Shown here: piece by piece, positions 13,150 to 56,564 of the stretch
Layout: every line of letters starts with the position of its first letter
Position numbering within the stretch: position 1 is the stretch's first letter
NCBI GenBank assembly: GCA_030656145.1
Contig: JAUSOF010000033.1
Location: 1 to 64,000, forward strand
DNA: 64,000 nucleotides
Reading direction: 5' to 3'
From: Pseudomonas sp.
GTDB taxonomy: Bacteria; Pseudomonadota; Gammaproteobacteria; Pseudomonadales; Pseudomonadaceae
Made by a program: the position numbers and the translations under genes
Notes under the pieces: generated by a model
Seen by the model: only the letters and a program-made list of their open reading frames with translations
Databases searched by the model: none
What the model was told of the DNA's origin: nothing

Positions 13150-14124
13150 ATGTCGCAAGAGACCACTGACCACACCCATTTCGAAACGGCAGCGCAGCAC
13201 GCCACCACTCGATTCCCGCTGTTTACCCCGGACCGCAGAGTCGACGCAGTACGCCTGGAGATGATCGGTCAGCGTTACGACTGCGCAAGCCACATCATGG
13301 TTTGCGAAGGTCAACACTTCCTTGGCCTGGTGAGGATCGAAGACCTACTCAGCGCCCCAGCGCAGATTACTCTCGCTGAGTTGATGGACGCTCAGGCACC
13401 AATAGTTGCGCCGGGCGTGGATCAGGAAATTGCCGCCTGGCGTGCCGTGAGTCAAGGGGAGTCGGCCTTGCCTGTGGTCGATGCGCAAGGCTGTCTGGTC
13501 GGGGTGATACCGCCCCACCGCCTGCTCGCGGTTCTGCTCTGCGAGCATGAGGAAGACTTGTCGCGCCTCGGGGGCTTTACCAAGGGAGCAGAGGCAGCGC
13601 GTAGCAGCAGCGAAGAGCCAGTGCGGCGGCGCTTTCGGCATCGCATTCCGTGGTTGTTGGTGGGGCTTTTCGGTGCACTACTGGCGGCGGATTTCGTTGG
13701 CCAATACGAGGCGCAATTGCAGCACCAGATCATCCTGGCTTTCTTCATCCCCGGAATCGTCTACCTCGCCGATGCGGTTGGCACCCAGACTGAAACCGTG
13801 GTTGTACGCGGTCTTTCGGTCGGGGTCACGATGCGCCAGATGGTTGGCCGCGAACTGCTGGTGGGCTTGGCAATTGGCTTGGCACTGGCCCTGGTCGCAG
13901 GGCCAGTGGTGTGGTGGCGTTGGGGAAGCGCCGAGATCGCCCTGTGTATTGGGCTATCGGTATTCGCCAGCTGCGCCACGGCAACCGTGGCAGCAATGAG
14001 TTTACCCTGGCTGTTGAACAGCCTATCCCTCGACCCTGCATTTGGCAGCGGGCCACTGGCCACGGTGATTCAGGATCTGTTGTCAGTGCTGATCTACTTC
14101 TCTATTGCCAGCGCATTGTTATGA
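13150..14124 (+). CDS. MgtE-like divalent cation transporter with CBS pair
   Basis: This 324-aa protein has an N-terminal CBS-domain pair (about 20-130) followed by an MgtE-type membrane domain of about five helices. Diagnostic parts are IPGIVYLADAVGTQTETVVV and LDPAFGSGPLATVIQDLLS, which in MgtE line the Mg2+ pore. The N-terminal MgtE_N gating domain is missing, so it is shorter than canonical MgtE (about 450 residues). Role inferred: Mg2+ or other divalent metal uptake, gated by nucleotides or ions through the CBS pair. An AGGAGG ribosome site supports the start. No Anr-type box is seen upstream, unlike its right-hand neighbours. Confidence 0.85.
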   Translation: MSQETTDHTHFETAAQHATTRFPLFTPDRRVDAVRLEMIGQRYDCASHIMVCEGQHFLGLVRIEDLLSAPAQITLAELMDAQAPIVAPGVDQEIAAWRAVSQGESALPVVDAQGCLVGVIPPHRLLAVLLCEHEEDLSRLGGFTKGAEAARSSSEEPVRRRFRHRIPWLLVGLFGALLAADFVGQYEAQLQHQIILAFFIPGIVYLADAVGTQTETVVVRGLSVGVTMRQMVGRELLVGLAIGLALALVAGPVVWWRWGSAEIALCIGLSVFASCATATVAAMSLPWLLNSLSLDPAFGSGPLATVIQDLLSVLIYFSIASALL

Positions 14125-14252
14125 CCCTGTCTGGTCACGACAGCTTGTATGCCGGCAGTGATCTGGCTAAACAGGCACCCTAAACATAACTAGCTGCCAA
14201 GCTGCTCTATCCTCTTTTAAGTCTTGCGGCGACTGGCATAACTGCTAGCGCG

Positions 14253-14266
14253 TTGATGGGTATCAA
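14253..14266 (+). promoter_or_regulatory. Anr/FNR box upstream of ftsH-like gene
   Basis: TTGATGGGTATCAA is a perfect match to TTGAT-N4-ATCAA, centred about 68 bases before the ftsH start codon. This suits class II activation with a short leader. It implies oxygen-limited expression of the ftsH-phosphoribosyltransferase unit. Confidence 0.85.
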
Positions 14267-14327
14267 TACAGCCTCCGGCCGCAGCGGTTACACATAACGT
14301 TGGACCATTCCACCGAGAGCCGGCCTT

Positions 14328-16133
14328 ATGGAAAAGCAGCATCAATGGAACCTCTGGTTCTTCCTCGTCGCCTTCAGCCTGCTCTTGGTGTTTCAGAATT
14401 GGTGGGGGGCACGCAGTGTGGTCGAGCCCCTGCCCTACAGCGATTTCATGCGCCTGCTCAAGGAGGAAAAACTGAGCGATCTGCGCATCGAGCAGGAGCA
14501 AATTACCGGCAAGCTCAAGGAACCGATCAATAATCGTAGTCAGTTTGTCACTGTGCGGGTTGAGCCCGATCTGGCCGAGGCCCTGGCACAGTCACAAGTG
14601 ACCTTCAGCGGGACTCGTCAGGGCGGGCCGATCAACACTCTGCTGAGCTGGCTGCTGCCCTTTATCCTGATCTTCGCCCTCTGGTCGTTCCTGTTTCGGC
14701 GTCTGGCCGAGAAACAGGGCTTTGGCGGCATGGTCAATGTTGGCAAGTCCAAGGCCAAGGTATTCGTCCAACGCGATACCGGGGTGACCTTCGATGATGT
14801 GGCGGGTATCGACGAAGCCAAGGCCGAGCTGCTCGAGGTGGTGTCCTTTCTCAAGGACCAGCCCAAGTACAGCCGCCTCGGCGCACGGATTCCCAAGGGC
14901 ATTCTGCTGGTTGGCCCCCCGGGCACCGGCAAGACCCTGGTGGCCAAGGCGGTGGCCGGCGAGGCCAACGTGCCGTTTTTTTCCATTTCCGGTTCGGAGT
15001 TCGTCGAGATGTTCGTCGGCGTTGGCGCCGCACGGGTGCGCGACCTGTTCGAGCAGGCGCGCAAAGCTGCGCCCTGCATCATTTTCATCGACGAACTGGA
15101 TGCTTTGGGCAAGGCCCGCGGGGTTGGCGCCTTCGGTGGCAACGACGAGAAGGAGCAAACCCTCAACCAGCTGCTGGCCGAACTGGACGGCTTCGATACC
15201 CGCGAAGGTGTTGTCCTGCTGGCCGCCACCAACCGCCCCGAGATCCTTGACCCGGCCCTGCTGCGCGCCGGCCGTTTTGACCGCCAGATCGTCATCGACC
15301 GCCCCGATCGAGGCGGCCGGGTGGCGATTCTCAAGGTGCATGCCAAGCGCATCCGCGCCACCGGCGACCTCGACCTGGAGCGCATCGCCGGGATTACCAC
15401 CGGGTTCTCCGGTGCCGACCTGGCCAACCTGGTCAACGAAGCCGCGATTCTCGCCACCCGCCGTGGCGCCGACGCGGTGAGCATGCTCGACTTCACCGCC
15501 GCGGTGGAGCGTATTGTGATCGGCAGTGAACGCCGCGGACGTTTGCTCCAACCCCATGAACGCGAGGTGGTGGCCCATCATGAAATGGGCCACGCCCTGG
15601 CCGCAGCCAGCCTGGTGGGCATGGATCCGGTGCACAAGGTCTCGATCATCCCGCGCTCGGTCGGCGCGCTCGGCTATACCCTGCAGCGGCCTACCGAGGA
15701 TCGCTTTCTGATCACCCTGGCAGAGCTGAAAGACCGCATGGTGGTGCTGCTCGCCGGGCGCGCCGCAGAGGACCTGATCTTCAACGAAATTTCCACCGGC
15801 GCCGCCGACGACCTGGCCAAGGTCACCGATATCGCCCGGCAGATCGTCACCCGCTTCGGCATGACGACCGAACTCGGCCAAGCCGTGCTGGAGCGCCAAA
15901 GCGCCAGTTACCTGGGCGAGCAGGCAATCAGCTTACGCGAGAAGGACTACTCGGAAGAGACCGCGCGTGAGGTCGACCTGAGTGTCAGGGCCCTGATCGA
16001 TGACGCCTATACACGGGCCAAGGCCCTGTTGCAGAGCCGGCGGGCCGAACTGGAACAAGGTGCCCAGTTGTTGTTGGAAAAGGAAACCCTGACCCCCGAG
16101 GAGTTCCCGGCGCTGCGGCCGCTCTCGACCTAG
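14328..16133 (+). CDS. ftsH: FtsH-family ATP-dependent zinc metalloprotease (probable paralogue)
   Basis: This 601-aa membrane-anchored AAA+ protease has two N-terminal transmembrane segments (about 8-27 and 108-128) around a short periplasmic domain. The AAA module has Walker A GPPGTGKT and Walker [10 protein letters not shown], and the peptidase domain has the zinc site HEMGH. Family members degrade membrane and misfolded proteins. It differs from housekeeping FtsH by HEMGH instead of the usual HEAGH and by lacking the long C-terminal tail (usual length 610-650). The Anr box upstream and the neighbouring stress genes suggest an extra, anoxia-induced copy; the housekeeping copy would lie outside this window. 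Confidence 0.93.
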
Positions 16134-16155
16134 CGTGCGGATGGAGGCAAACCTT

Positions 16156-16713
16156 ATGCAGAAAAAAACCGTCGGGCAGCGACTGTGCCTGTACGACAGT
16201 ACAGAACTGGAGACCATCGTCCACCGCATGGCGCGTCAGGCCGCAGCCCTGCTGCCGCCCCAGAGCGCGCTGGTAGGCATTCTGCGCCGTGGCGAGCCAC
16301 TGGCGCGCCTGCTGCAACAGCAGCTGGCGCAGCTCACCGGGCAAGCTGCATTGCCCCTGTATGGACTCAAGGTCAAACGCTACGCCGATGACCTGAGCCT
16401 GCTGCATACGCAAACGGCGCTGACCGAAAGTCCCGAACTGGCCGCGCTGGACCTGTCCACCACCACCCTGCTGGTAGTCGATGACGTGCTCTATGAAGGC
16501 CACTCGTTGTTGCGCACCTGCGCCTACCTGTCGCGTCTCGGTGCCCAGCGAGTACGCACGGCGGTGCTGGTCGATCGCTGCGTCTGCACCCAGCCGGTGC
16601 ATGCCGATATCGTCGGCGTGCGCCTGCAGATCGCCCCGGGCGACATCATCGAATGCAACGTGCCGCCTTACGAGCAGGCATTTCGCATCGAGGTGCTGCG
16701 CCACGGCGGCTGA
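16156..16713 (+). CDS. PyrR-like phosphoribosyltransferase
   Basis: This 185-aa protein has the type I phosphoribosyltransferase fold with a PRPP loop LLVVDDVLYEGHSLL and a flexible hood including VGILRRGEPLA, close to PyrR. PyrR proteins bind UMP and PRPP and may regulate pyrimidine genes or have weak uracil phosphoribosyltransferase activity. The loop reads YEGHS where PyrR normally has YTGRT, so activity may be altered. I chose ATG 16156 because GGAGG lies eight bases upstream, rather than the ORF-track start at 16135. It follows ftsH by 22 bases and is likely in the same transcript. Confidence 0.85.
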   Translation: MQKKTVGQRLCLYDSTELETIVHRMARQAAALLPPQSALVGILRRGEPLARLLQQQLAQLTGQAALPLYGLKVKRYADDLSLLHTQTALTESPELAALDLSTTTLLVVDDVLYEGHSLLRTCAYLSRLGAQRVRTAVLVDRCVCTQPVHADIVGVRLQIAPGDIIECNVPPYEQAFRIEVLRHGG

Positions 16714-16802: not shown

Positions 16803-16816
16803 TTGATGTACATCAA
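16803..16816 (+). promoter_or_regulatory. Anr/FNR box upstream of BCAM0308-family gene
   Basis: TTGATGTACATCAA is a perfect site and lies within a longer perfect palindrome CGTTGATGTACATCAACG. It is centred about 116 bases before the start codon. Confidence 0.85.
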
Positions 16817-16925: not shown

Positions 16926-17420
16926 ATGGATAAGTATCAGCAGAGTCAGAAGAACAAACTGTTCAACCCCAGCCGCCACGATCCAACCCTTAACCCGCGC
17001 AGTGGTGGCACCGCACTCTGTCCCAAGTGCAGCGTACTTTATCAGGCCGGCAGCTGGGCCTGGCAAACGCCACAAACCAGCCTTCCGGCTGATGTAAGGT
17101 CGGTTGTCTGTCCGGCCTGCCAGCGTATTGAAGACAAGTCTCCGGCGGGAACCCTGACCCTGTCAGGGGCGTTTATGAAGGCCCATCACGACGAAATCAT
17201 CAACCTGGTCCACAACACCGAAACGCTGGAAAAGGCCGAGCACGCCATGGAAAGGCTTCTCGAAATCACCGCCCAGGATGACGTCGTGCAAGTCACCACC
17301 ACCGGTATCCACCTGGCCAATCGCATCGGTCATGCCCTGGACTCCGCCTACAAAGGCCAGACCAAATACCATTACGACGATGAGCAAACCCACGTCAGCA
17401 TCCACTGGCAACGCGACTGA
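16926..17420 (+). CDS. BCAM0308-family protein with zinc-ribbon cysteines
   Basis: This 164-aa soluble protein starts MDKYQQSQKNKLFNPSRHD and has two CxxC pairs (LCPKCS and VCPACQ) that could form a zinc ribbon in the N-terminal half. The C-terminal half is mixed alpha-beta and ends HVSIHWQRD. I recognise it as the family named after BCAM0308, a gene of the Burkholderia cenocepacia low-oxygen-activated locus; its biochemical function is unknown. I started it at 16926, where a GGAG ribosome site fits, rather than at 16875. A perfect Anr box lies upstream, fitting low-oxygen expression. Confidence 0.82.
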   Translation: MDKYQQSQKNKLFNPSRHDPTLNPRSGGTALCPKCSVLYQAGSWAWQTPQTSLPADVRSVVCPACQRIEDKSPAGTLTLSGAFMKAHHDEIINLVHNTETLEKAEHAMERLLEITAQDDVVQVTTTGIHLANRIGHALDSAYKGQTKYHYDDEQTHVSIHWQRD

Positions 17421-17585: not shown

Positions 17586-20500
17586 CTAGTACAGCCAGAC
17601 CCTGACCTCAGCCGTGGAGCCATCGCGGGGGAACGCCACTGTTTCCTCCAGCAGCGGTTGGCCATTGAGGGTCATGCGCGGCCACGCGGTCTGGGTCTCG
17701 CTGGTGATAATTTTCTCCACAACGATGCGCAGCGCCCCCTGTGCGCCCTGGATCTGCGCGCTGAAACCTGGCCAGCCTGGCGGCAGGCAAGGTGAGATCG
17801 AGAGCCGGCCTTCACGCAGGCGCAGGCCGAGGATTGATTCCACACCCAGTCGCCAGGTCCAGGCTGCCGAGCCGCTGTACCAGGTCCAGCCACCGCGCCC
17901 GCAATGGGGGGCGACGCTGGCAATATCGGCCGCCAGTACATAAGGCTCGACCCGGTAACGTGTCAGCCGTTCGGGGCTGTCTGCCTGGTGGATCGGGTTC
18001 ATTAACTGAAAAACCTGCCAGGCGCCTGCTGCATCTCCCAGTTCCGCAAAGGCCATGCCCAGCCAGGCGGCAGCATGGCTGTACTGGCCACCATTTTCGC
18101 GGATACCGGGTGGGTAGGCCTTGATGTAGCCAGGTTCCCGGCGGGTATTGGCAAACGGTGGCCACAGCAGACGAATCAGCCGCTGCTGTTCACTGATCAA
18201 CTCGGCGGCGGCGTGTTCGACGGCACGCCTGGCTCTTGGGTTGGCATGCCCGCCGGATAGCACCGCCCAGGATTGCGAGATCGAGTCGATTTTGCACTCA
18301 TCGTCCGTGTGGCTGCCCAGGGGCTGGCCGTCGTCATCCAGGGCGCGCAGGTACCAGTTGCCGTCCCAGGCCACCTGGTTGATCTGCTGTGTCAGCGCCT
18401 GAGCCGATTTGATCCAGTAGATCTGCTCGTCGAAGCAGGCCTGTCGTTCAGCAAGACCGGCAAAGCCTTTCATCGTCGCTACCGTGAACCAGCCGAGCCA
18501 GACACTTTCGCCACGGCCCTCGCGCCCGAGGCGATCCATGCCGTCGTTCCAGTCGCCGCCGCCGATCAACGGCAGGCCATGGCTGCCGCGGGTGTTGCCG
18601 TGCTGCATCGCCCGCTTGCAGTGTTCGTAGAGCGAATAAAGCTGGCTGCCAGGCAGGTAACGCGCATAGCGATCATGTTCGTCGGCGGCCAGGGGCGGCG
18701 CCTGGAGGAAGGCCAGCTGCTCGTCAAGAATGCTCTGGTCACCGGTCGCCTCGACGTACTGGCTGGTGACGTACGGCAGCCACAGCAAGTCATCCGAACA
18801 CCGCGTGCGCACGCCACGATCCAGCGGTGGGTGCCACCAGTGCAGCACATCGCCCTCCTCGAACTGGTGAGCGGCGCAGGCGAGGATATGCGCGCGGGCG
18901 CGTTGCGGTTCAGCGTGCAGCAGGGCCAGCACGTCCTGCAACTGATCGCGGTAGCCGATGGCGCCACCGGCCTGATAGAAGCCGGCGCGGGCCAGAATGC
19001 GCGAGGCCAGGGTCTGATAGAGCAGCCAGCGGTTGACCATCAAATCGAAGGCCGGGTCGGGCGTCTGTACCTGAACGCTGCCCAGCAGGCGATCCCAGTG
19101 CTGGGTGACCTGAGTCAGGGCCAGCTCGACCTGCCCCTCCTGCTGCCAGTGGCGGGCCAATGCGATGGCCTGCTCGCGATCACTGCCTTGACCGAGCAGG
19201 AATACCACCTCGACCGTGGCACCAACGGCGATATCCAGGTGCACCTGAAACGCGGCGCAGGGGTCGTCCCCAGGTTCGATTCGTCCGCCCAGCGCCCAGC
19301 GTTGTAGCCCGGCGGGACTGCTCGGATGGCCGGCCATACCGAGAAAATCCTGACGGTCGGTGGTCAGGCTGTGAGGGGGACGGTTGGCACTGAGAAATGC
19401 CACACGCTCGGCAAACTCGGGGTTCCACGGGTTGCGGGCCAGTAGTGAATGGCTGTCGCGCTCGTATTCACAGACCACGTGGGTTCTCGCGGTGCTGCGC
19501 AGCGCCCCGAGCAGCCATTCGGCGTAATAAGTAGCGGTGACCCGCCGCGCTCGTGTACTGACATTGTGCAGGCGCAGGCGAATGATCTTCACGGGGTCCT
19601 CCAGGGCGACGAAGACCAGCACCTCCTGCTCCAGCCCCTGACTGTTGCGCCGCCAGCTGCTGTAACCCGCGCCATGGCGAATCTGGCAGGCATGGCCCTG
19701 GCCTGCCGGCAATGGCGTGGTGGTCCAGACAGCTGCGGTTTCCTCGTCGCGCAGATACAGCGCCTCGCCAGCACCATCGGCCAATGGGTCGTTGTTCCAT
19801 GGCGTCAGGCGATTTTCACCGCTGTTCAGCGCCCAGCTAAAACCAAGTCCAGCCTCGCTGACAATGCTGCCGAAGCCCTGATTGGCCAGCACGTTGCACC
19901 AGGGTGCTGGGGTGCGCTGATCCGCCTCAAGATGGATCAGGTATTCACGACCATCGGCACTGAAACCGCCCAGCCCGTTGTCCTCACGTAGATCGTTGGG
20001 GCGCTGCAAGGGTCTGTCGATCTCGTGTAACGGCAAGCCTGTGCCGCTGAACGGCGGCGGCGACGGGCGCGGCAACATGGCCGCCTGCAGTTGCTCGGCG
20101 AGCGTGCCGGCAGCTTCGTCAAGCACTACCCGCGCGGCACTTTCGAGCAGGCCGATGTCACTGGCGGGTAATTGATCGGCGAACAGCAGGTGCACGCCGC
20201 CGCTGTGCAGGGGTAACTCTTCCTGCCCCCCGACGTCCTGCAGCAGTGCGTGCAGCTGCTCGCGCAGCGGCTCGGCATAGCTGGAGGCCCCCAGGCGCAA
20301 TACCAGAAGATCGACATGCAGGCCATGGCGCCGCCAGAAACGCTGGCCGCGCACCAGGGTGCGCAGCAAACCGGTTTCCTGACCATGACCGATGCGCAAC
20401 AGCAGCAGTGGCCGATCGCCGGAGATGCCCATGCCCCACAGTCGTGGCTGACCCAGGCGGTTGGCCAGCAAGGTCGCGGCTCCCCCGCGCAGGGTTGGGT

Positions 20501-23500
20501 GCGGATGCAGCAATAAGGATGCAAGCAGCTGCAACTCCATCAGCCAGGCGGGCTCCAGTTCCAGCTGGCGGGCTTCGCGACTGGCCTCGCTGGCCGCATC
20601 GGCGAAGGCCCACTCCAGCGCGGACAGGGTGGAGTAGCGCTCGGTGTGTTCAAGTAGCGACTGCCGTGAGCCACCAGCCAGGGTGAGGAAAGCCAATTGC
20701 TGATGCTCGCCGGGTTCGAGCACCACGCGCACCTGCAGGGCCATTATTGGGTCTAGCGTCCAGCCGCTGTTGCCCCCTAGTCCTTGAAGGACGCCCGGCG
20801 GCTGACGCTCGTCGCCGTGCCGACCGAGGAAACTCTGGCGGTCGCTGTCAAACGTCACGCATGCCATCCGCGGGTCATCCATCACTACGCGATGCACAAG
20901 CAGCGGCGGCTTTTCCCCGGGATGCCGCGCCCGTCGGGTAAACAGCAAGGCGTGCAGGTGCGGGAGATACTCGCTGCCGACGAACAGCTTGCTGAATGCA
21001 GGGTGACGCTCGTCATCGAGCGGCGGCGCCAGCACCACTTCGCCATAGCTGGTCAGTTGCAGGGTGCGCGGTCGATCGCTCTCGTTGCTCAGGGTCAGGC
21101 GGCGAATTTCCAGGTCGTCGGCAGCGGCGACGGCGACTTCCATGCGCAGGCGGATGCCATGGTCGTAACGCTGGAATTCCGCCATGTGCGGATGGAAGAC
21201 CACCTGTTCATGCTCGGATATTACGCCGGTCGGCTGGCGGCCCGCCGACCATAGCGCCCCGCTCTGCTCGTCGCGCAGGTAGATCCACAAGCCCTGGCTA
21301 TCGCGGGTGGCATCACCCTGCCAGCGGGTCAGCGCATGCTGATGCCAGCCCAGCCCACCGCCACCGGCCGTGGATATCCAACAGCACAGACGGCCGTTGC
21401 CGAGTACATGAACCTGGGGGAACAACTCGGCATTCCTGGGCACCCAGGCATGTGGTGGTGCCACCCGATCGTTGGCCGGCACTTGCCGCACCTCGATGCG
21501 CTGGGTTTGTGCAGGCAGTTCCTGCGGGATGCGCTCATGCAGCAACAGCTCCATGATCCGCACCCGCGGCTCTTCGCGAAAACGCCGCACCAGCACATCG
21601 GCGCAGAGGGCGTTGTCCAGCGCCGCGAGGATCATGCCCTGGTGATGGGCCATAAACGCACGCACAATCGTGAATCGCCGGCCACTGGCAACCCGCTCAA
21701 CGCTATAGTCTGCCGCCTCGTAGAGTCCGTAGCTGCCGATCAGGCCGAGCCGCTGCAGCTCCAGCAGATTATCCAGTGCTGCAGCCGGGTTGACCGCCAG
21801 GGCCAACGCCGTCGCATAGGGCGCCACTACCAGGTCATGCGCCTGCTCGCGGCGCAAGCCCAGCCCAGGCACTCCGAATGCCCGGTAACGGTAACGGTGC
21901 TCGGGGTCGCGCGAGGCAAAAGCCGATTCGGAAATCCCCCAAGGCACACCTTTTTCACGGCCATGCTGGCGCTGCATCTCGACAGCGGCGCGCTCGCTTT
22001 GCCCCAGCAGCGAACCGGCATGGCTGGGCAGCAGTAATGGCGGCATCAGGTACTCGAACATCGAGCCATTCCAGGACAGCAAAGACAACCCGCCAGCCAT
22101 CTGCGCCAGGGGGCGGCCAAGGAAGAACCAGTGTTCCAACGGCACATCGCCTTTCATGATGGCGAAATAGCTGGCCAGTCGGGCCTCGCTCGCCAGCAGG
22201 TCGTAATGATGATTGTCGAGGCGATCGGCACTCAGGTTGTAGCCAATGTGAAACAGCCGTGATTGCTCATCGTAGAGCGGCCGGAAATCCATGCCCAAGG
22301 CCATTGACTCGGCCCGCGCTGCTGCCTCCAGCAGACTCTGGTGCAGCAATTGCTGCGCCTGGCAGCCATTTTCAAGTGCCAGTTTGAGCTCAAGCTGCCA
22401 GTGTTCATCAGCCTCGTCGGTGGCAACGAAGTTGGCCAGCAAGGCCTGGGCCTCGACACAGGCGGTGGCAACTTCGCTCATGTTCAGGTTGGTTGGCAGG
22501 CAGGCGTCGAGTTGTTCTACCAGCTGCCTGCGCCCGTGCAGTGGCGCCTGCAGCAGGCTCTGCCAAGGCTGTAAACGCTCACGGTCACGACGCATATCGA
22601 GCAGGTGATGATGAATGCGCTCAAGCCAGCACTGGATCTCCTTGAGTTGCTGCACGCTCAGCCCCTGCTGGCGGGTGATGGCCTGGGCTATCGCCACACG
22701 CAGGGCGGCTTCACGCTCTTGTAACGCGTCCAGGCGGTGCGCATCGTCACTGACTTGCTGGCACGCGATGACAAAAGCCGCCACGTGCTCCTTCACTTCA
22801 GCATGCTCGACCATGCTCAGGGCTGCGCGCAATAGTTCGACCGCGTCCACCAGGCCCACCCAGTACTGCTCACGCAGCGCCGTACCCGAGGCAATTTCGA
22901 GACAGCCGCGCTGCAGGGTCATCAAGCAGACTGCCAGGTTGCCGCTGTCGACGGTCGAGACGTAGCGCGGCTCCAGCGGGCTCAACAGCCGTGTGTCGTA
23001 CCAGTTGAGCCAGTGGCCACGGTAGCGTTCGAGTTGTTGCAGGGTATCCAGGCCGCGCCGGATGCGCGCAGACAGGTCACTGGCGCCGATATAGCCCAGA
23101 TCCGCGGCCGCAAGGGTAGACAGAAACAGCATGCCAATATTGGTCGGCGAGGTGCGGTGGGCGATCTCGCTGTAGGGCTCTTCCTGATAATTATCCGGGG
23201 GCAGCCAGTTGTCGTCGGGGCCAACGAAGGTTTCGAAGAATAGCCAGGTACGACGCGCCAGTTGACGGAGAAAGGCGCGCTGGGTCGTATCCAATTCAAC
23301 CACTGCAGGCTGGCGTGGCCTGGCGATGGCCAGGGCGATTTCCGGGGCCAGCAGCCAGAGCAGCAGCAAGGGTGCGGCGGGTAGCAATGCAGCTGGATTG
23401 AATAGCACCAGTAGGCTGCTCAGCAGCATGGCAAAAGCCGGCGATGCCCACATGTGCTGCCACACATAAGCGCGCGAGCCGCGCTCGGCGAGCATCCGTG

Positions 23501-38306: not shown

Positions 38307-38425
38307 TATCGACCTGCTACCCAGGCGCGCATGCTGTTGGCTTGAATGGATATCAAGGGTGTTTGCCTGCCAGGCAGACTGTTGCGCACAGCCGCGGGGC
38401 TGCCGCAGATCGTGTCGAGGTGCCG

Positions 38426-39463
38426 ATGAATGTTCAGCAGGAGGTCATCGCTTTTCTCTCGCGTCCCGAGAGCTACGGCGAGCCCGGGAATCTGGTGGAG
38501 CTGATTGAGACACATGGCTCGCTGATCTTTCTGCACGGCCAGCGCGCCTACAAGCTCAAGCGCGCCATTGCCTATGCCGCCCTCGACTTTCTCAGCCTGG
38601 ACAGCCGCGAACGGGCCTGCCAAGCCGAATTGCGCCTCAACCGGCGCACCGCCCCTGATCTCTACCTGGCGGTGCGTTCGATCAACCGTGCTGCGGACGG
38701 CAGCCTGAGATTCAATGGCGGTGGCCAGGTGCTCGACTGGGTGGTGGTGATGCGCCGCTTTGCCCAGGACGCGCTGTTCGAGCGCATGGCGCGAGACGGG
38801 CGCCTGGCTCTGGCCCTGATGGACAGTTTGGGCGCGGAGATCGCTCGCTTCCATGCCAGTGCCGAACTGACCCAGGCCTTCGGCGGCGCGGCAGGCATCC
38901 GCCAGGCCGTTGAGGACAATCATCGCGAACTGAGCCACTACCAGGCGCTACTCGATCCGATTGCGGTGCACGCCTTGTACGATGCCTCGCTAGCCGCTCT
39001 CGATGAGCTGTCTGGAACCCTCGAGCAGCGCCGGCGCGAGGGTCGGGTACGCTGTTGCCATGGCGATCTGCGCCTGGCCAATATTTGCCTGTACGAGGGC
39101 CGCCCAACCCTCTTCGATGGCATCGAATTCAGCGAGCAGGTTGCCTGCATCGACGTACTCTATGACCTTGCGTTCGTGCTTATGGATCTGCGTCAGCATG
39201 ATCTGGCTGGGCATGCCGACAGGCTATTGCACAGCTATCTGGCGCACAGCGCACTGACTGAAGACTGCCGGCCGCTGCCACTGTTTCTCTCGCTGCGCGC
39301 GGCTACCCGCTGTTTCACCCTGGCCTGCAGCGCCGTGCGCCTGAGCGATCCTGCGGCGCGGGCGGAAAAAGCCGAGCAGGCACAAGCACTGCTCCAGCAG
39401 GCCAAGGCCTATCTGCGCGGTGACGCTCAAGCCTTGACGCACCGCCCACAAGGGCAATGCTGA
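38426..39463 (+). CDS. Aminoglycoside phosphotransferase-like kinase (COG2187 type)
   Basis: This 345-aa protein has the kinase-like fold of the APH family: an N-terminal lobe with HGQRAYKLKRAI containing the likely ATP-binding lysine, and the catalytic motifs CHGDLRLANIC (near 211) and LFDGIEF. It corresponds to the first half of longer COG2187 proteins, which usually carry a C-terminal P-loop kinase that is absent here. The substrate is unknown and drug resistance should not be assumed. I started it at 38426 with a GAGGTG ribosome site; the ORF-track start at 38342 overlaps the regulatory region. It lies 28 bases before the prs-like gene, probably in one transcript. Confidence 0.85.
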   Translation: MNVQQEVIAFLSRPESYGEPGNLVELIETHGSLIFLHGQRAYKLKRAIAYAALDFLSLDSRERACQAELRLNRRTAPDLYLAVRSINRAADGSLRFNGGGQVLDWVVVMRRFAQDALFERMARDGRLALALMDSLGAEIARFHASAELTQAFGGAAGIRQAVEDNHRELSHYQALLDPIAVHALYDASLAALDELSGTLEQRRREGRVRCCHGDLRLANICLYEGRPTLFDGIEFSEQVACIDVLYDLAFVLMDLRQHDLAGHADRLLHSYLAHSALTEDCRPLPLFLSLRAATRCFTLACSAVRLSDPAARAEKAEQAQALLQQAKAYLRGDAQALTHRPQGQC

Positions 39464-39491: not shown

Positions 39492-40463
39492 ATGGCTAGA
39501 GAGTCTCCCCTGCTGTTCGCCCTGCACGGCAGCCAGCAATATGCCGCCCGTGTGGCCCGGCGACTCGGTTGCCCGCTGGCGGCCCATGAAGAGCGTCCGT
39601 TCGAGGATGGCGAGCACAAGAGCCGGCCCCTGCAGCCGGTCGACGGCCGTCGGGTGCTGGTATTCCACTCGCTCTACGGCGATGCCGAGTCCAGCGTCAA
39701 CGACAAGCTCTGCCGCCTGCTGTTCTTCTGCGGCGCGCTGAAAGATGCCGGCGCTCGTCAGGTTCACGTGGTTACGCCCTACCTGTGCTACGCGCGAAAA
39801 GAACGACGCACCCAGCCCCAGGACCCCATCATCAGTCGCTATGTCGCCACGCTGCTGGAGGCTTGTGGCGTCGATCGCCTGCTGGCCCTGGAGGTGCATA
39901 ACGACGCGGCCTTCGACAACGCTTTTCGCATTCCCACCCAGCACGTGCAGGGCGCCGAGCTGTTTGCCGAACACTTCGCCGAATGTCTTGGCGCCGGCGA
40001 GGAAGTGGTGGCCGTGTCTCCGGATGCTGGCGGGGCCAAGCGCGCCGAGCAATTTCGCCAGGCCTTGCAACGGCGCATCGGTCGAGCGGTGGGTAGCGCC
40101 TACATGGAAAAATACCGCAGTAACGATGTAGTCACCGGCGCCCTGCTGGTTGGCGAAGTGCGTGGTAAGACCGCGATCATCGTCGATGACCTGATCAGCA
40201 CCGGGGGCACCCTGCTACGTGCCGCCCAGGCCTGCGAGGGTGCCGGCGCAACACGGATCTTTGCCGCCGCGGTACACGGTCTGTTTACCGGCGGCAACGC
40301 CCTGCTCGACAGCCCCCTGCTGGACGCCATTGTCATCTGCGACAGCGTGCCGCCGTTTCGCCTGGAGCCCGAACGGGTTGCCCGAAGGCTGCAGGTCATC
40401 GACAGCAGCGCAGCGGTGGCGGCCATCCTGGCCGAGCAATACGGCCTGAAACTCATGGCCTGA
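39492..40463 (+). CDS. prs: Ribose-phosphate pyrophosphokinase (PRPP synthetase) homologue
   Basis: This 323-aa protein makes PRPP from ribose-5-phosphate and ATP if active. It has the PRPP loop VDDLISTGGTLLRAA, the flexible-loop region HVVTPYLCYARKER and a paired phosphoribosyltransferase fold of normal length. It diverges from housekeeping Prs, with EVHNDAAFDNAF where DLHAxQIQGFF is usual, so it is likely a second, island-specific copy. A GAGGAG ribosome site sits upstream. PRPP is the substrate of the phosphoribosyltransferases at 16.2 kb and 46.5 kb, which suggests a shared nucleotide-salvage theme. Confidence 0.9.
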   Translation: MARESPLLFALHGSQQYAARVARRLGCPLAAHEERPFEDGEHKSRPLQPVDGRRVLVFHSLYGDAESSVNDKLCRLLFFCGALKDAGARQVHVVTPYLCYARKERRTQPQDPIISRYVATLLEACGVDRLLALEVHNDAAFDNAFRIPTQHVQGAELFAEHFAECLGAGEEVVAVSPDAGGAKRAEQFRQALQRRIGRAVGSAYMEKYRSNDVVTGALLVGEVRGKTAIIVDDLISTGGTLLRAAQACEGAGATRIFAAAVHGLFTGGNALLDSPLLDAIVICDSVPPFRLEPERVARRLQVIDSSAAVAAILAEQYGLKLMA

Positions 40464-40816
40464 CGCTCAAACTGGCTATGTACCCATTAACTGTCGAGGG
40501 GACAAAGCCCTAGGAGACCTAATGCCGCTTGTTGGGCTTCGCTGCGCTCAGCAGCATCCCCAAGCCCGCCGCGAGGTTCTGTAGGTTGGGCCGAAGCCCA
40601 ACGAATACGTCATCAACCGCTGGGCCGCGCTGCGTTCATTCTGCGCGGCCCACGCCAGCCTACCCAATGCTGCCTCGCAACCGATGACGAGCTAGCCAAA
40701 TACGCTGGAGTTCAGCCGCTATGACAGGCAGCCACATTGCCGCCGCCTGATCCAGATCAAGACCCGTGCATGTGCCCAGCTTTAGCGTGCAAGGCTTATC
40801 GGAATCGGAGGTCCGT
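40464..40816. other. Intergenic gap with repeats and an Anr-like box
   Basis: This 353-base gap holds an inverted pair of a GTTGGGCTTCG-type dispersed repeat (about 40529-40552 and 40581-40603) and, near its right end, an Anr-like box for capA. I see no small gene. Confidence 0.55.
40747..40760 (+). promoter_or_regulatory. Anr/FNR-like box upstream of capA-family gene
   Basis: CTGATCCAGATCAA has one mismatch to TTGAT-N4-ATCAA and is centred about 63 bases before the chosen start codon. Confidence 0.65.
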
Positions 40817-41935
40817 ATGCCTGGCAACCCTTCTGCCGTGAGGCTGTTTCTTGCAGGTGATCTGATGTGTGCCCGCGGCATCGACCAGATCCTGCCCCAC
40901 CCCGGCGATGCCCGCATATATGAAGCGTATGTCAAGGATGCCGGCGACTATGTGCGCCTGGCAGAGCGGCGCCACGGTACGATCGCCCAACCGGTGGATT
41001 TCGCCTATGTCTGGGGCATGGTGCTGGAGGCCCTCAGGCAGCGGCGCCCGGACGTACGCCTGGTCAACCTGGAAACCGCAGTGACCTGCAACGGTTGGCC
41101 GCAACCAAAAGGCATCAACTACCGAATGAACCCGGCCAATCTGCCGGTACTCGAGGTGGCCGGTATCGACTGCTGCGTGCTGGCCAACAACCATGTGCTG
41201 GACTGGGGCCAAGCGGGCCTGGCCGAGACCCTGGCCAGTCTCGATGGCCATGGCCTGCGGCATGCCGGTGCCGGTATGGACTGTGCCAGCGCCCAGGCGC
41301 CTGCGATTGTGCCGCTGGCCGACGATGGGCGCCTGCTGGTATTCGCTTACGCCACAGGCGACTGCGGGGTGCCGCCGGATTGGGCTGCCTGCGAGCAGCA
41401 GCCCGGGGTTGCGCGTCTCGATGACCTCTCGCCGCGCAGCGTACAGCGCATCGCCCAGCACATCCGCACGTTCAAGCAGCCCGGCGATCGGGTGTTGGTC
41501 TCCCTGCACTGGGGCGGCAACTGGGGCTTTGCCGTGGCGCCGGAGCAACAACGCTTTGCCCATGGGCTAATCGACGAAGCTGGCGTGGACCTGGTGCACG
41601 GCCACTCGGCGCACCACATCAAGGGCCTGGAAGTCTACCGCCAGCGCCTGATTATCTATGGCTGTGGCGACCTGCTGAATGACTATGAAGGCATTGATGG
41701 TTACGCGCCTTACCGTGGCGATCTGGGCCTGCTGTACTTTGCCGATTTGGCCAGAGATGGCCGCCTGCTGGCGCTGGAATTGTTGCCGATCTGTCAGCGC
41801 CAGCTGAGTATCCATCGGGCCAAAGGTGCGGATCGCCAATGGTTGCAGGACACCCTGCAGCGCGAGTCGGCGCAATTCGCTTGCACCGTACGCCCCACCA
41901 GCGAGAGCAGTTTTGCGCTGGTCTGGCCCAGGTAG
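40817..41935 (+). CDS. CapA-family (poly-gamma-glutamate capsule-type) metallophosphatase
   Basis: This 372-aa protein belongs to the PGA_cap/CapA family, which has a calcineurin-like metallophosphatase fold. It shows FLAGDLMCARGIDQ at the start, VRLVNLETAVTCNG, LANNHVLDWGQ and SLHWGGNWGF, the expected metal-site histidines and aspartates. No signal peptide or membrane anchor is visible, so it may be cytoplasmic and not part of a real capsule system; no CapB or CapC homologue is nearby. I chose ATG 40817 behind GGAGG; the ORF-track start is 40766. It converges on groEL with a nine-base gap. Confidence 0.87.
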   Translation: MPGNPSAVRLFLAGDLMCARGIDQILPHPGDARIYEAYVKDAGDYVRLAERRHGTIAQPVDFAYVWGMVLEALRQRRPDVRLVNLETAVTCNGWPQPKGINYRMNPANLPVLEVAGIDCCVLANNHVLDWGQAGLAETLASLDGHGLRHAGAGMDCASAQAPAIVPLADDGRLLVFAYATGDCGVPPDWAACEQQPGVARLDDLSPRSVQRIAQHIRTFKQPGDRVLVSLHWGGNWGFAVAPEQQRFAHGLIDEAGVDLVHGHSAHHIKGLEVYRQRLIIYGCGDLLNDYEGIDGYAPYRGDLGLLYFADLARDGRLLALELLPICQRQLSIHRAKGADRQWLQDTLQRESAQFACTVRPTSESSFALVWPR

Positions 41936-41944: not shown

Positions 41945-43561
41945 CTAGCCCGGGAATGGCGGTTCTCTGGCGTCTTCCTTCTCTGGCAGCTCGGTCATGG
42001 TGGCCTCGGTCAATAGCAGCACACTGGCCACGGACACCGCATTTTCCAGGGCTACCCGCACCACTTTGGTCGGATCGATGATGCCGGCCTGGTACATGTC
42101 GACGTAGCTGTTGGTCGACGCATCAAAGCCGACGTTGGTCTTTTCCGCGAGCATGCGCGCCACCACCACGCCGGCATCCACCGCCGAGTTTTCGGCGATG
42201 ATCCGCGCCGGCGCTTCCAGCGCGCGGCGTAATATCTGCAGACCGGTGCGCTCGTCGCCCTCGGTTTTCGCTTCCTCGTCGACAAGCAGCGGTACCGCAC
42301 GCAATAACGCCAGGCCGCCACCGGGGACTATACCCTCGGCAATTGCCGCCTTGGTCGCCGAGATGGCGTCGTCGAGTGCGTCCTTGCGGGTTTTCATTTC
42401 GGCCTCGGTGGGCGCGCCCACGCGGATCACTGCCACCCCGCCGGAGAGCTTGGCCAGGCGTTCCTGGAGTTTTTCCTTGTCGTAATCGCTGCTGGCCATC
42501 TCGATCTGCTTGCGGATTTGTTGCACGCGCCGCTCGATTGCCTGGCGTTCGCCGCCACCACCGATCAGGGTGGTGCTCTCCTTGTCGACTACCACCCGCC
42601 GGGCGCGGCCGAGCTGGCTCAGTTCGACCTGTTCGAGGCGAATGCCCAGCTCGCTGGAGATCACCAGACCGCCGGTTAGCACCGCGATGTCCTGGAGCAT
42701 TTCCTTGCGCCGCTCACCGAACCCCGGGGCCTTGACCGCTACCGCGCGGAGGATGCCGCGAATCTGGTTAACGATCAGGGTCGCCAACGCTTCGCCTTCG
42801 ATATCCTCGGCGATGAAGGCCAACGGCCTGCCACTCTTGGCGATTTGCTCAAGTAGCGGGATCAGGTCTTTGAGCAAGCCGATCTTCTGGTCGCATAGCA
42901 GCAGGTAGGGATCGTCGAGCTCCACCAGCATCTTGTCGGTGTCAGTGATGAAGTACGGCGAGACATAACCACGGTCAAAGCGCATGCCCTCGACCACCTC
43001 GACTACGGTTTCGGTGGTCTTTGATTCCTCGACGCTGATCACCCCTTCGCTGCCGACCTTCTCCAGCGCATCGGCAACCAGTTCGCCAATGGCACCGTCG
43101 TTATGCGCAGAGATAGTCGCCACCTGGGCTTTTTCCTTGCGCGTGTGTACCGGCTTTGACTGCGCACGCAGCGAGCCGATCACCACCTGCAGGCCGCGAT
43201 CCAGGCCGCGCTTGATATCGATGGCGCTAGCGCCTGCCACCACATTGCGCACCCCGTCGGCGAAAATCGCATGGGCCAGCACCGTCGAGGTACTGGTGCC
43301 GTCACCCACCGCCTCGCCAGTGCGCTCGGCGGCCTGGCGCAGCATCTGCACCCCGAGATTTTCTTCGGGGTCTTCCAGGCTCACCTGCTTGGCTATGGTT
43401 ACGCCATCGTTACAGACCTGCGGCGTGCCCCATTTTTTTTGAATCAGCACCGATTTCGATTTCGGCCCGAGGGTTACCCGAATCGCATCCGCCAATTGAG
43501 TCGCGCCACGCAGCACCTTCTCTCGGGCACTGCCGCGGAACAGGATTTTGGTGTGGGCCAT
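41945..43561 (-). CDS. groEL: GroEL-family chaperonin, divergent paralogue
   Basis: This 538-aa group I chaperonin keeps the ATP-binding motif [13 protein letters not shown] and the catalytic aspartates in DPEENLG and KDALDDA. It differs from housekeeping GroEL in ending [12 protein letters not shown] instead of the GGM-rich tail, and in having no groES partner in the window. It follows cfa on the same strand after 42 bases and could be co-transcribed with it. Role inferred: an accessory chaperonin for anoxia or stress, possibly using the main GroES or specialised on few substrates. Confidence 0.93.
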
Positions 43562-43603: not shown

Positions 43604-44776
43604 TCAGCGCAGCGAACGATACCCATCAGCCACCCCGCCCTTGGACAGGACGATCTGCCACAGCTGGAGATTACGCGCACGAAATGCCCCGGCGCAGGTC
43701 AGCAGGTAGTAGCGCCACATGCGATAGAAGCGCTGATCAAAGTGTGGTGCCAGTTCGGCCCAGTGCTGCTCGAAATTGGCATACCAGGCCATCAGGGTAA
43801 GGTCATAATCGGCGCCAAAATTATGCCAGTCCTCCATCACCCAGTCGGGTTCGATGGCTTTGCCGATCTGCGCGATCGACGGCAAACCGCCATTGGGAAA
43901 GATATGCCGGTCGATCCAGGCATCGCTGTGCAAGCCGCTTAGGTTGGCCCCGATGCTGTGTAGCAGGAACAGGCCCTTGTCGCGCAAACAGCGTTGCACA
44001 ACCTGCATATAGGTGCGGTAGTTCTTCCAGCCCACGTGCTCGAACATGCCAAGCGAGACGATGTGGTCGAAGGTCTCATGCAGGTCACGGTAATCCTGCA
44101 GGCGGATGTCCACAGGCAAGCCGTTGCAGCGCTGCCGGGCAAGCTCGGCTTGCTCACGAGAAATGGTGATGCCGACCACCTCGGCAGCATAATTGCGCGC
44201 TGCAAACTCGGCGAAACTGCCCCAGCCACAGCCGATATCCAGTACCCGGTCACCCGGCTGCAAACCGATCTTGCGGCAGACCAGGTCGAGTTTGTTGGTC
44301 TGCGCCTGTTCGAGGTCGGCAGCATTGCGCCAATAGCCGCAGGTGTAGGTCATGCGTGAATCGAGCATGCACTGATAAAGCTGATTACCAAGGTCATAGT
44401 GGCGTTCGCCAACCATATAGGCACGTGCCTTCGACTGCAGGTTGGCCAGCAGAACGCGCAACAGTTGCCAGGCCTCGTGCCAACTGAAGCGAATCTGTGT
44501 TTCGAGATTGGCGCGTAACGCCCGGTGGATGAACTCGTCGAGCTGTTCGCACTCCCACCAGCCATCCATATAGGCTTCCCCGAGCCCCAGATTGCCTTGG
44601 GACAAAATGCGCGGATAGGCGCGCGGGTCAAGCACATGCATATCCCACGGATTGCTGCCGTTGAGGCCAATTCCAGCGCGCTCCAGCAAGCGCTCTATCT
44701 TGTCCCTGGCCTGATGGCTTTCACGCCCCGATAACGCGATTTCGTTCGTCTGCAGCGGCAGCTTGCTCTGATCCAT
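43604..44776 (-). CDS. cfa: Cyclopropane-fatty-acyl-phospholipid synthase
   Basis: This 390-aa SAM-dependent methyltransferase converts unsaturated membrane phospholipid chains to cyclopropane forms, a stationary-phase and stress response. It has the SAM motif RVLDIGCGWGSFAEFAA, SLGMFEHVGWKNY and the C-terminal acceptor-site region. A GAGGATG ribosome site precedes the start. Its last codons (VADGYRSLR) are formed by a copy of the GATGGGTATCG dispersed repeat, so the present stop may have come from repeat insertion. It is divergent from the FNR-type regulator. Confidence 0.93.
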   Translation of the reverse strand: MDQSKLPLQTNEIALSGRESHQARDKIERLLERAGIGLNGSNPWDMHVLDPRAYPRILSQGNLGLGEAYMDGWWECEQLDEFIHRALRANLETQIRFSWHEAWQLLRVLLANLQSKARAYMVGERHYDLGNQLYQCMLDSRMTYTCGYWRNAADLEQAQTNKLDLVCRKIGLQPGDRVLDIGCGWGSFAEFAARNYAAEVVGITISREQAELARQRCNGLPVDIRLQDYRDLHETFDHIVSLGMFEHVGWKNYRTYMQVVQRCLRDKGLFLLHSIGANLSGLHSDAWIDRHIFPNGGLPSIAQIGKAIEPDWVMEDWHNFGADYDLTLMAWYANFEQHWAELAPHFDQRFYRMWRYYLLTCAGAFRARNLQLWQIVLSKGGVADGYRSLR

Positions 44777-46481: not shown

Positions 46482-46507
46482 GGCGTTAGCCTCTTGCGCG
46501 GCTGCAA

Positions 46508-47194
46508 TTAGTCATCTGTGTTGTTCTGCTCGTGCTGCCAGGCCTGGTGCAGAAGGGTCTGTACCTGCTGATCCGAGGTCTGGGAAAAATCCACGTACCA
46601 ACGGCCGATGGCGTTGAAGATCTCGGGCATGAACGGGCAGATGACTTCATCCACCTGCCGGCGCAGCAGCGCCACGCTATCGGGCGGTGCCACCGGTACG
46701 GCGACCACGATGCGCGCGGGGGACTGCTGGCGTACCGCACTGATCGCAGCGTGCATGGTGGCGCCGGTGGCCAGGCCATCGTCGACCAGAATCACCTGCT
46801 GCCCGTCCAGCAGTGGAGGCGCTCGCTCGCCACGGTAGGCGCGGTCACGGCGCTGCAACTCGAGACTTTCCTGCGCAGTCACCGCGTCGACGGTGGCGTC
46901 ATCGATATGCAGTGCCGCCAGCACATCGCGATTGAGCACCCGCACGCCACCACTGGCGATGGCACCCATGGCCAACTCGGCATGGCCTGGCACGCCAAGC
47001 TTGCGCACCAGCATCAGGTCGAGACGCACCTGCAGTGCGCTGGCGATTTCATAGGCAACCGGCACGCCGCCACGCGGTAAGGCCAGCACGATCACATCAG
47101 GACGTTGACGATAGGCGACCAACAAGTGCGCCAGCGCCTGGCCGGCGCTGCTTCTGTCACGGATGGGGATGTCCAGTATTTCGTCGCGAGTCAT
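46508..47194 (-). CDS. Phosphoribosyltransferase-domain protein
   Basis: This 228-aa protein has a type I phosphoribosyltransferase fold with VLALPRGGVPVAYEIA and the PRPP loop QVILVDDGLATGATMHAA. The C-terminal region, including QSPARIVVAVPVAPPDSV, is typical of the stand-alone members often paired with a dienelactone hydrolase. The nucleobase specificity is unknown. I started it at 47194 because GGAG lies seven bases upstream, rather than one base from the ORF-track start at 47200. Only a weak Anr-like half-site is visible upstream. Confidence 0.86.
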   Translation of the reverse strand: MTRDEILDIPIRDRSSAGQALAHLLVAYRQRPDVIVLALPRGGVPVAYEIASALQVRLDLMLVRKLGVPGHAELAMGAIASGGVRVLNRDVLAALHIDDATVDAVTAQESLELQRRDRAYRGERAPPLLDGQQVILVDDGLATGATMHAAISAVRQQSPARIVVAVPVAPPDSVALLRRQVDEVICPFMPEIFNAIGRWYVDFSQTSDQQVQTLLHQAWQHEQNNTDD

Positions 47195-47372
47195 TGTCAT
47201 GCTCCAGCTTGCGCGCCTGGATCAACCATGCGCCGGAGTTTCTGCAGTGTCTTTGATCTCGATGGGTAGTTCGCACGATAACTGCCCGCCCTCCTTCACT
47301 GGCGAGTGCTCCCCTGTGCATTGCCTCGACTGCAATGATGCAAACCTCAGGTGCACACGAACCCTGTGCAAC

Positions 47373-47591
47373 TCATGTGTCGAGCTGACTCTCGATCAGC
47401 TCGCTGAGCGCCTGGTTGATCAATGCCGAGTTCTGCGTCATTAACAGCAGTTGCCCCCGCACGCCCTGGGCCACCTCCGTTGAGCCACGCTGCTCGATCC
47501 ACTTGGCCAGCTGCCAGACGGCTTCTCCCAGAGCGACCTGGTTTTGATGCAGGCGAGCCAGAGTCGAGGCTGTAAGTTGTTTGTGGTGCAT
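47373..47591 (-). CDS. Small hypothetical helical protein
   Basis: This 72-aa protein (MHHKQLTASTLARLHQNQ...) is predicted by eye to be almost entirely helical and amphipathic, with no signal peptide or cysteines. A clear AGGAG ribosome site six bases before the ATG supports it as real and favours it over the longer overlapping ORFs in other frames. I do not recognise the family. It lies on the same strand as the phosphoribosyltransferase-hydrolase pair and could be the first gene of that unit. Confidence 0.65.
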   Translation of the reverse strand: MHHKQLTASTLARLHQNQVALGEAVWQLAKWIEQRGSTEVAQGVRGQLLLMTQNSALINQALSELIESQLDT

Positions 47592-56561: not shown

Positions 56562-56564
56562 CTA

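What the first reader, a model, noticed from the sequence alone, without database searches (positions are those of the whole stretch)
13150..47591. Anoxic-persistence island similar to the Burkholderia lxa locus, in a Pseudomonas-type genome
About 25 genes between the recombinase and the iron genes combine protein quality control (FtsH, Hsp20, GroEL paralogues), two tandem Usp proteins, two phosphoribosyltransferases plus a PRPP synthetase homologue, an APH-like kinase, CapA and Cfa, envelope glucan synthesis, a formate/pyruvate operon and an FNR-type oxygen sensor. Known: a BCAM0308-family gene and similar stress families belong to the low-oxygen-activated (lxa) locus of B. cenocepacia. Inference: this is a related, self-regulated survival module linked to a denitrification cluster.
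Basis: partly seen in the sequence, partly recalled or inferred. Interest (0 to 1): 0.85.

Follow-up and report, generated by a model that had tools for sequence, protein, structure and literature searches.

The report
Anr-controlled low-oxygen survival gene island
A 34-kb block of about 24 stress and metabolism genes in a Pseudomonas genome carries low-oxygen switch sites at most of its promoters and belongs to a patchy, reshuffled family of survival islands that includes the Burkholderia lxa locus, so it probably helps these bacteria sit out oxygen loss.

Summary
The gene list is real, and the low-oxygen reading gets strong new support. The whole 4.02-Mb genome holds only 15 exact FNR/Anr boxes (TTGATN4ATCAA). 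Seven lie in this 34-kb island, all intergenic, in front of ftsH, the BCAM0308 gene, usp-ndvB, the fdh-acs-pdh operon/hsp20, and usp/aph-prs (binomial P 2e-11). The BCAM0308 family occurs in 24 of 300 same-genus genomes. All 22 further loci read carry parts of the same gene kit in shuffled order, with 79 exact boxes in 858 kb; 400 kb of control DNA has one box and none of the window's kit. Burkholderia loci with the lxa gene order share FtsH, BCAM0308, FNR, Hsp20, Usp and an APH-like kinase with the window, at 27-50% identity. They lack the pyruvate/formate operon, GroEL2, phosphoribosyltransferases, PRPP synthetase, CapA, Cfa and NdvB. So this is a distinct Pseudomonas/Azotobacter subtype of an lxa-like class, not an lxa copy. 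BCAM0308 proteins match NMD3 by profile and predicted fold, which suggests a large-ribosomal-subunit-binding dormancy factor. The fdh-acs-pdh-acp operon may make acetate, formate and ATP from pyruvate. Both functions are inferred; there are no expression or survival data.

The parts
13150..14124 (+). MgtE-like Mg2+ transporter with CBS domain; variable member
   Evidence: PF01769 5.8e-22; absent from G070 island
14253..14266 (.). exact FNR/Anr box 68 bp upstream of ftsH
14328..16133 (+). FtsH-family protease, with Walker A and HExxH zinc site
   Evidence: 50% to Burkholderia lxa-type FtsH
16135..16713 (+). phosphoribosyltransferase PRT1 (PyrR/HGPRT-like), probably co-transcribed with ftsH (7-bp gap)
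16803..16816 (.). exact FNR/Anr box upstream of the BCAM0308 gene
16926..17420 (+). BCAM0308-family protein: Cys4 zinc site plus NMD3/eL22-like domain
   Evidence: NF040826; PF04981; model pLDDT 84.7; best PDB match Nmd3, E 1.5e-4
17586..25997 (-). NdvB/Cgs-type cyclic glucan synthase (GT plus GH94, 2803 aa); optional cassette with usp1
   Evidence: absent from Pseudomonas borbori island
25994..27067 (-). Usp1, two Usp domains, overlaps ndvB by 4 bp
27094..27107 (.). exact FNR/Anr box upstream of usp1-ndvB
27128..27391 (-). acyl carrier protein with DSM phosphopantetheine site, last gene of the fdh-acs-pdh operon
27397..28611 (-). 2-oxoacid dehydrogenase E2 (DHRxxDG active site)
28612..29586 (-). 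pyruvate dehydrogenase E1 beta
   Evidence: NF006667, 403 bits over cut-off 321
29583..30581 (-). pyruvate dehydrogenase E1 alpha
   Evidence: TIGR03182, 447 bits over cut-off 394
30578..32380 (-). AMP-forming acetate-CoA ligase
   Evidence: NF003313, 874 bits over cut-off 729
32374..33213 (-). FAD/NAD-binding electron-transfer subunit (AsrB/HydG-like)
33210..34226 (-). 4Fe-4S electron-transfer subunit (HydB/ShyB/AsrA-like)
34213..36306 (-). formate dehydrogenase catalytic subunit, Cys-type (RICHSPSV), first gene of the operon
   Evidence: (TIGR01591, 752 bits over cut-off 666)
36366..36431 (.). two exact FNR/Anr boxes between the divergent fdh-acs-pdh operon and hsp20
   Evidence: fdhA has such boxes in 5 of 5 islands
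36464..37042 (+). Hsp20 small heat-shock protein
37205..38209 (-). Usp2, two Usp domains, UspE-like
38211..38306 (.). two exact FNR/Anr boxes between divergent usp2 and aph-prs
38342..39463 (+). APH-like kinase (weak Pfam match)
   Evidence: 24.3 bits over cut-off 23.2
39492..40463 (+). ribose-phosphate pyrophosphokinase homologue
40766..41935 (+). CapA/PGA_cap family protein, one-mismatch FNR box at 40747
41945..43561 (-). second GroEL (51% to the other copy), no GroES beside it, no GGM tail
43604..44776 (-). cyclopropane-fatty-acyl-phospholipid synthase
   Evidence: NF008686
45027..45791 (+). FNR-type regulator with C23-x2-C26-x5-C32 plus C111/C125
45816..46481 (-). alpha/beta hydrolase, kit member in 12 of 22 islands
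46508..47200 (-). phosphoribosyltransferase PRT2, kit member in 17 of 22 islands

Best explanation
A modular low-oxygen survival island, the Pseudomonas borbori/aestuarii-type subtype of a wider class that also contains the B. cenocepacia lxa locus. When oxygen falls, [4Fe-4S] Anr/FNR (core Anr and probably the island's own FNR) binds boxes in front of most transcription units and switches the island on as one regulon. The products would hold a non-growing cell together. FtsH, Hsp20 and GroEL2 handle damaged proteins. BCAM0308, a zinc/NMD3-like protein, would park large ribosomal subunits. The phosphoribosyltransferases and PRPP synthetase would salvage nucleotides. The fdhABG-acs-pdh-acp operon would turn pyruvate into acetyl-CoA, then acetate plus ATP, with electrons passing to or from formate. 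CapA, Cfa and NdvB would strengthen the envelope. Shown here: gene content, boxes, recurrence, patchy distribution. Inferred: induction, the role of each product, the survival benefit.
For: Exact boxes: 15 in the genome, 7 in the island, P 2e-11; 0.01 expected in the window. In 22 other same-genus BCAM0308 loci: 79 exact boxes in 858 kb against 0.55 expected and 1 in 400 kb of control; 74 of 79 intergenic although 84% is coding. Boxes of up to one mismatch lie upstream of BCAM0308 in 21 of 24 loci, GroEL2 14/17, Usp 39/52, Hsp20 12/16, fdhA 5/5. The same kit appears in shuffled order, with none of the window's kit in 20 controls. Patchy: 24/300 genomes, PRT1 linked. Kinship to lxa: conserved BCAM0308-FtsH neighbours and shared FNR, Hsp20, Usp, APH. 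Published: lxa is induced at low O2 and needed for anoxic persistence, includes FNR BCAM0287, and FNR-like boxes precede many low-O2-induced genes (PMC6127331, PMC4505428). NMD3: Pfam in 14 of 19 members, Foldseek top hits all Nmd3.
Against: No expression, binding or survival data. Boxes may serve Dnr as well as Anr, since the motifs overlap. groEL2-cfa, the fnr gene and PRT2-hydrolase have no exact or one-mismatch box here. Cfa, CapA and NdvB are found almost only in the window's own subtype. NMD3 resemblance is remote (E 1e-5 to 1e-6, TM about 0.5). Neither the direction of the pyruvate/formate operon nor the role of its ACP can be read from sequence.
Confidence: 0.8

Rival explanations
1. 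An accessory annex of the neighbouring denitrification cluster: the genes serve nitrate-respiring growth (formate and pyruvate as electron donors, chaperones for new enzymes), regulated by Dnr, rather than survival without an acceptor.
For: Iron-transport, Fer4_5, Dnr-like and nor genes follow directly; in G070 and G083 and in part in G237 denitrification-block genes are also adjacent. Dnr and Anr boxes overlap. Formate dehydrogenase can feed nitrate respiration.
Against: Most of the 22 other islands show no nor-block genes in their 40 kb. Only one of the window's nine exact boxes lies in the denitrification part. The kit is dominated by protein repair, Usp and salvage genes.
Confidence: 0.12
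2. A general stress island of the transmissible heat-resistance/protein-quality-control type (TLQC/LHR) that responds to heat or disinfectant and not to oxygen.
For: FtsH, Hsp20 and GroEL paralogues together; patchy distribution; recombinase at one edge.
Against: Coherent exact FNR boxes; an FNR regulator; formate/pyruvate/acetate enzymes, with phosphoketolase and acetate kinase in sister islands. No ClpG/ClpK, YfdX, KefB or DegP homologues among the genes called and annotated in the island.
Confidence: 0.05
3. A loose hot spot of unrelated cargo that happens to collect stress genes; the boxes reflect separate acquisitions and not one module.
For: Order is shuffled; cassettes such as ndvB-usp1, mgtE, groEL2 and BCAM0308 come and go between near relatives.
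Against: The same families recur in 22 genomes with no hits to the window's kit in controls; BCAM0308 and PRT1 are strongly linked across 300 genomes; promoter boxes are kept in different arrangements.
Confidence: 0.05

Closest known systems
B. [quoted passage not shown]
   Same: BCAM0308-FtsH neighbourhood, Hsp20, Usp, FNR protein, an APH-domain protein; FNR-like boxes reported; patchy among strains
   Different: Low identity (27-50%); the window has the fdh-acs-pdh-acp operon, GroEL2, PRT1/PRT2, PRPP synthetase, CapA, Cfa, NdvB; it lacks BON, alcohol dehydrogenases, beta-lactamase-fold protein, cation ATPase and acetate kinase. The loci compared are lxa-ordered loci of unnamed Burkholderia genomes, not J2315 itself
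Islands in Pseudomonas borbori, P. aestuarii, P. tumuqii, P. sp. MMS21 TM103 (no paper on them found)
   Same: Same genes at 81-96% identity, same order over most of the span read, same promoter boxes where checked (borbori, tumuqii-type)
   Different: ndvB-usp1 is missing in borbori, aestuarii and MMS21; present in tumuqii
Anr regulon of Pseudomonas
   Same: Same box (TTGATN4ATCAA); Usp genes are typical Anr targets (own knowledge)
   Different: Here packed into one accessory island that carries its own FNR protein
NMD3 (archaea/eukaryotes), for BCAM0308
   Same: Pfam PF04981 and Foldseek top hits; Cys4 zinc site plus an eL22-like domain, which in Nmd3 occupies the P site (PMC5536393, PMC6579518)
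   Different: About 160 aa; lacks the C-terminal eIF5A-like (OB/SH3) domains; bacterial; no eIF6 partner known

Membership tests
lxa-type low-oxygen locus | BCAM0308-family gene close to a second ftsH | tested here: met
   ftsH 14328-16133, BCAM0308 16926-17420; neighbours in Burkholderia loci too
lxa-type low-oxygen locus | several Usp genes plus Hsp20 | tested here: met
   two double-domain Usp and one Hsp20; lxa has six Usp (PMC6127331)
lxa-type low-oxygen locus | own FNR/CRP-type regulator and FNR-like boxes | tested here: met
   BCAM0287 (PMC4505428)
lxa-type low-oxygen locus | BON-domain protein, zinc alcohol dehydrogenase, cation ATPase, acetate kinase set | tested here: not met
   no hits in the window; present in lxa-ordered loci and in many other Pseudomonas islands
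lxa-type low-oxygen locus | conserved gene order with lxa | tested here: not met
   only six families shared, order differs; J2315 itself could not be named among the genomes
lxa-type low-oxygen locus | induction at low O2 and need for anoxic persistence | not testable with these tools
   needs RNA-seq and deletion
NMD3 family (BCAM0308) | sequence profile match above curated cut-off | tested here: met
   PF04981 26.1 bits over 24.9; 14 of 19 members at E up to 0.01
NMD3 family (BCAM0308) | zinc site plus eL22-like fold | tested here: met
   four conserved Cys, Foldseek Nmd3 E 1.5e-4; resemblance remote, TM about 0.5
NMD3 family (BCAM0308) | eIF5A-like domain and full length (about 400-500 aa) | tested here: not met
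   164 aa, too short to hold the C-terminal domains
NAD(P)-linked formate dehydrogenase (operon 27.1-36.3 kb) | catalytic Fdh-alpha with Cys/Sec active site and electron-transfer subunits | tested here: met
   TIGR01591 over cut-off, RICHSPSV; HydB/HydG-like subunits below equivalog cut-offs
TLQC/LHR heat-resistance island | ClpG/ClpK disaggregase, YfdX, KefB, DegP set | tested here: not met
   none among called and annotated island genes

The most novel reading that the evidence does not exclude
These islands carry a bacterial NMD3-related factor (BCAM0308) that docks its zinc/eL22-like module at the P site of the 50S subunit when oxygen runs out, a ribosome-parking mechanism separate from HPF/RMF. 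The island's Fdh-Acs-Pdh-ACP operon works as a substitute for pyruvate formate-lyase: PDH plus CO2-reducing formate dehydrogenase gives acetyl-CoA and formate, and the AMP-forming ligase runs backwards for ATP, as shown for Syntrophus (PMC4992975).
Probability: 0.25. Interest if true: 0.8.

Novelty: new variant of a known kind. Interest (0 to 1): 0.62.

Why it matters
In the papers found, lxa is described only in Burkholderia. The data here place it in a wide class of Anr/FNR-boxed survival islands: BCAM0308 in 24 of 300 sampled Pseudomonas-genus genomes and 29 of 65 of the Burkholderia genus, in Azotobacter and Azospirillum, and in Desulfobulbaceae and Anaerolineales MAGs. This gives a defined gene kit, regulatory sites and non-pathogenic model hosts (Azotobacter vinelandii, P. 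borbori) in which anoxic persistence of aerobes can be tested gene by gene. The NMD3 link turns an unnamed lxa protein into a concrete ribosome hypothesis.

Tried and rejected
G+C as evidence of foreign origin: rejected, since values of 0.60-0.64 continue to 84 kb and it is the galU-gor side that is low. The recombinase as the island's integrase: its relatives lie in other contexts and no direct repeats were found around it, so not claimed. A sequence search of BCAM0308 against PDB chains gave only weak RING-finger matches; the fold search gave Nmd3. An HPF homologue near the Azospirillum locus was not found in the Pseudomonas islands. Rfam: no hits. tRNA: none. One search was a mistyped DNA query of mine and carries no information. 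The Sass 2013 lxa paper itself is not held, so lxa content comes from papers that cite it and from lxa-ordered loci found here. Caveats: the genome-contig scan used a single motif and is not a census; most of the 22 islands are 45-85% identical to the window and only G280 is near 90%; stretches of 40 kb do not reach the ends of all islands, so absences are lower bounds; my gene caller is simple and some start codons are uncertain.
Full report
What is there. A gene call with Pfam and NCBIfam confirms 24 genes from 13.15 to 47.2 kb, between a tyrosine recombinase and an iron-transport/denitrification block. Transcription units, from gap lengths and strands: ftsH-PRT1; BCAM0308; usp1-ndvB; fdhA-fdhB-fdhG-acs-E1a-E1b-E2-acp; hsp20; usp2; aph-prs; capA; cfa-groEL2; fnr; PRT2-hydrolase.

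Oxygen control. The exact FNR/Anr box TTGATNNNNATCAA is expected 0.01 times in the window and found 9 times. Seven lie in the island, all intergenic and within about 210 bp of a gene start. The whole genome (4.02 Mb, about 90% complete) has 15 such sites, and the reversed control pattern has none. Seven of 15 in 0.85% of the genome has binomial probability 2e-11. One caution: one of the nine (11810) lies inside the recombinase gene. The island's FNR protein has the C-x2-C-x5-C motif and further cysteines and is 49% identical to a second FNR in the genome, presumably core Anr. 'Self-regulated' is therefore plausible but not shown; its own promoter has only a two-mismatch site.

A recurring, reshuffled kit. 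Searching 300 same-genus genomes with NF040826 found 24 carriers. I read about 40 kb (18 kb in one case) around 22 of them, besides the window and P. borbori. Every one has further kit genes, in different orders and orientations, although G317 shows only Hsp20 in the stretch read. Counts in the 22 stretches: Usp 19, PRT2 17, GroEL2 15, Hsp20 13, the hydrolase 12, FtsH 11, PRT1 11, the pdh-acs operon about 9-10, FNR 9, PRPP synthetase 7, and the FDH catalytic subunit in only 2. Other recurring genes absent from the window are an erythromycin-esterase-family protein (14), a GNAT (10), BON (10), nitroreductase (9), phosphoketolase (9) and acetate kinase (5). Twenty arbitrary 20-kb stretches from five of these genomes contain none of the window kit at the thresholds used; the looser one search gave only weak hits to widespread superfamilies. 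The 22 loci hold 79 exact boxes in 858 kb; the controls hold one in 400 kb. Of the 79, 74 are intergenic although 84% of the sequence is coding. Boxes with at most one mismatch precede BCAM0308 in 21 of 24 loci, GroEL2 in 14 of 17, Usp in 39 of 52, Hsp20 in 12 of 16 and fdhA in 5 of 5. PRT1 at high identity occurs in 29 of the same 300 genomes, 19 of them among the 24 BCAM0308 genomes (odds ratio 101, P 1e-18; not corrected for phylogeny).

Relatives further out. A genome-contig scan named carriers: P. aestuarii, P. borbori, P. tumuqii, P. indica, Azotobacter chroococcum and vinelandii, Azospirillum, Desulfobulbaceae MAGs, an Anaerolineales MAG and Burkholderia. The Anaerolineales locus has acp-E2-E1b-E1a-acs at 44-74% identity about 1-6 kb from BCAM0308, a possible cross-phylum trace of the operon. 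An Azospirillum plasmid has BCAM0308 with Hsp20, phosphoribosyltransferases, PRPP synthetase, Usp and CRP/FNR genes. A Cupriavidus plasmid has FtsH, BCAM0308, GroEL, PRT2, APH and E1-acs.

Relation to lxa. In the genus of Burkholderia sp. SRS-46, 29 of 65 genomes carry BCAM0308. Three loci (G397, G392, G404) share the order Usp-Hsp20-...-FNR-...-BCAM0308-FtsH in whole or in part, which matches the published lxa numbering (BCAM0276, 0278, 0287, 0309; PMC6127331, PMC4505428, PMC3759415). With these the window shares FtsH 49-50%, BCAM0308 34%, FNR 38%, APH 34%, and Hsp20 and Usp about 30%. It does not share the pyruvate/formate operon, GroEL2, the phosphoribosyltransferases, PRPP synthetase, CapA, Cfa or NdvB. 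The other Pseudomonas islands bridge the gap, since many carry lxa families (BON, cation ATPase, beta-lactamase fold, alcohol dehydrogenase) that the window lacks. So: same class, different subtype.

BCAM0308. Members share four zinc-type cysteines, with one exception at the first; 14 of 19 match Pfam NMD3. An AlphaFold model (pLDDT 84.7, pTM 0.80) gives yeast Nmd3 as the top three PDB hits (E 1.5e-4 to 6e-3), followed by ribosomal proteins whose chain names indicate eL22 (the chain reading is my knowledge). In Nmd3 the eL22-like domain sits in the P site of the large subunit (PMC5536393, PMC6579518). A role as a large-subunit-binding dormancy factor is an inference from this; a TM-score of about 0.5 and these E-values make it a good lead and not a proof.

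The fdh-acs-pdh-acp operon. Fdh-alpha, PDH E1-alpha, E1-beta (subfamily model) and acetate-CoA ligase pass curated cut-offs, and two exact boxes precede the operon. By stoichiometry PDH plus CO2-reducing FDH equals the pyruvate formate-lyase reaction, and AMP-forming acetyl-CoA synthetase can run for ATP in Syntrophus (PMC4992975). The alternative, formate oxidation feeding denitrification next door, is equally open. The ACP is unexplained.

Verdict. A real and coherent island with the marks of oxygen control; the lxa comparison is right in kind and too strong in detail. I found no paper describing the Pseudomonas version, but the library is limited to open licences.

Noticed in passing
window 11680-12972: Tyrosine recombinase at the island edge whose relatives (67-77%) sit in other contexts in other Pseudomonas genomes; about 44% identical recombinases also lie near the Azotobacter islands (L035, L036).
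   Followed up: partly
window 41945-43561: GroEL2 has no GroES beside it and ends EPPFPG instead of the GGM tail; relatives recur in 15 of 22 islands.
   Followed up: partly
window 27128-27391: A small acyl carrier protein ends the acs-E1-E2 operon wherever the operon is complete, also in the Anaerolineales MAG; its role is unexplained.
   Followed up: no
L039:3536-10459: Anaerolineales MAG with acp-E2-E1b-E1a-acs (44-74% identity) beside BCAM0308: possible cross-phylum transfer.
   Followed up: no
window 47869-63947: Iron-transport (P19) gene, Fer4_5 membrane protein, two Dnr-like regulators and nor-type genes follow directly, with one exact FNR box at 57063.
   Followed up: partly
G376, G380, G395 (Burkholderia genus): Two BCAM0308 copies per genome, on different contigs.
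   Followed up: no
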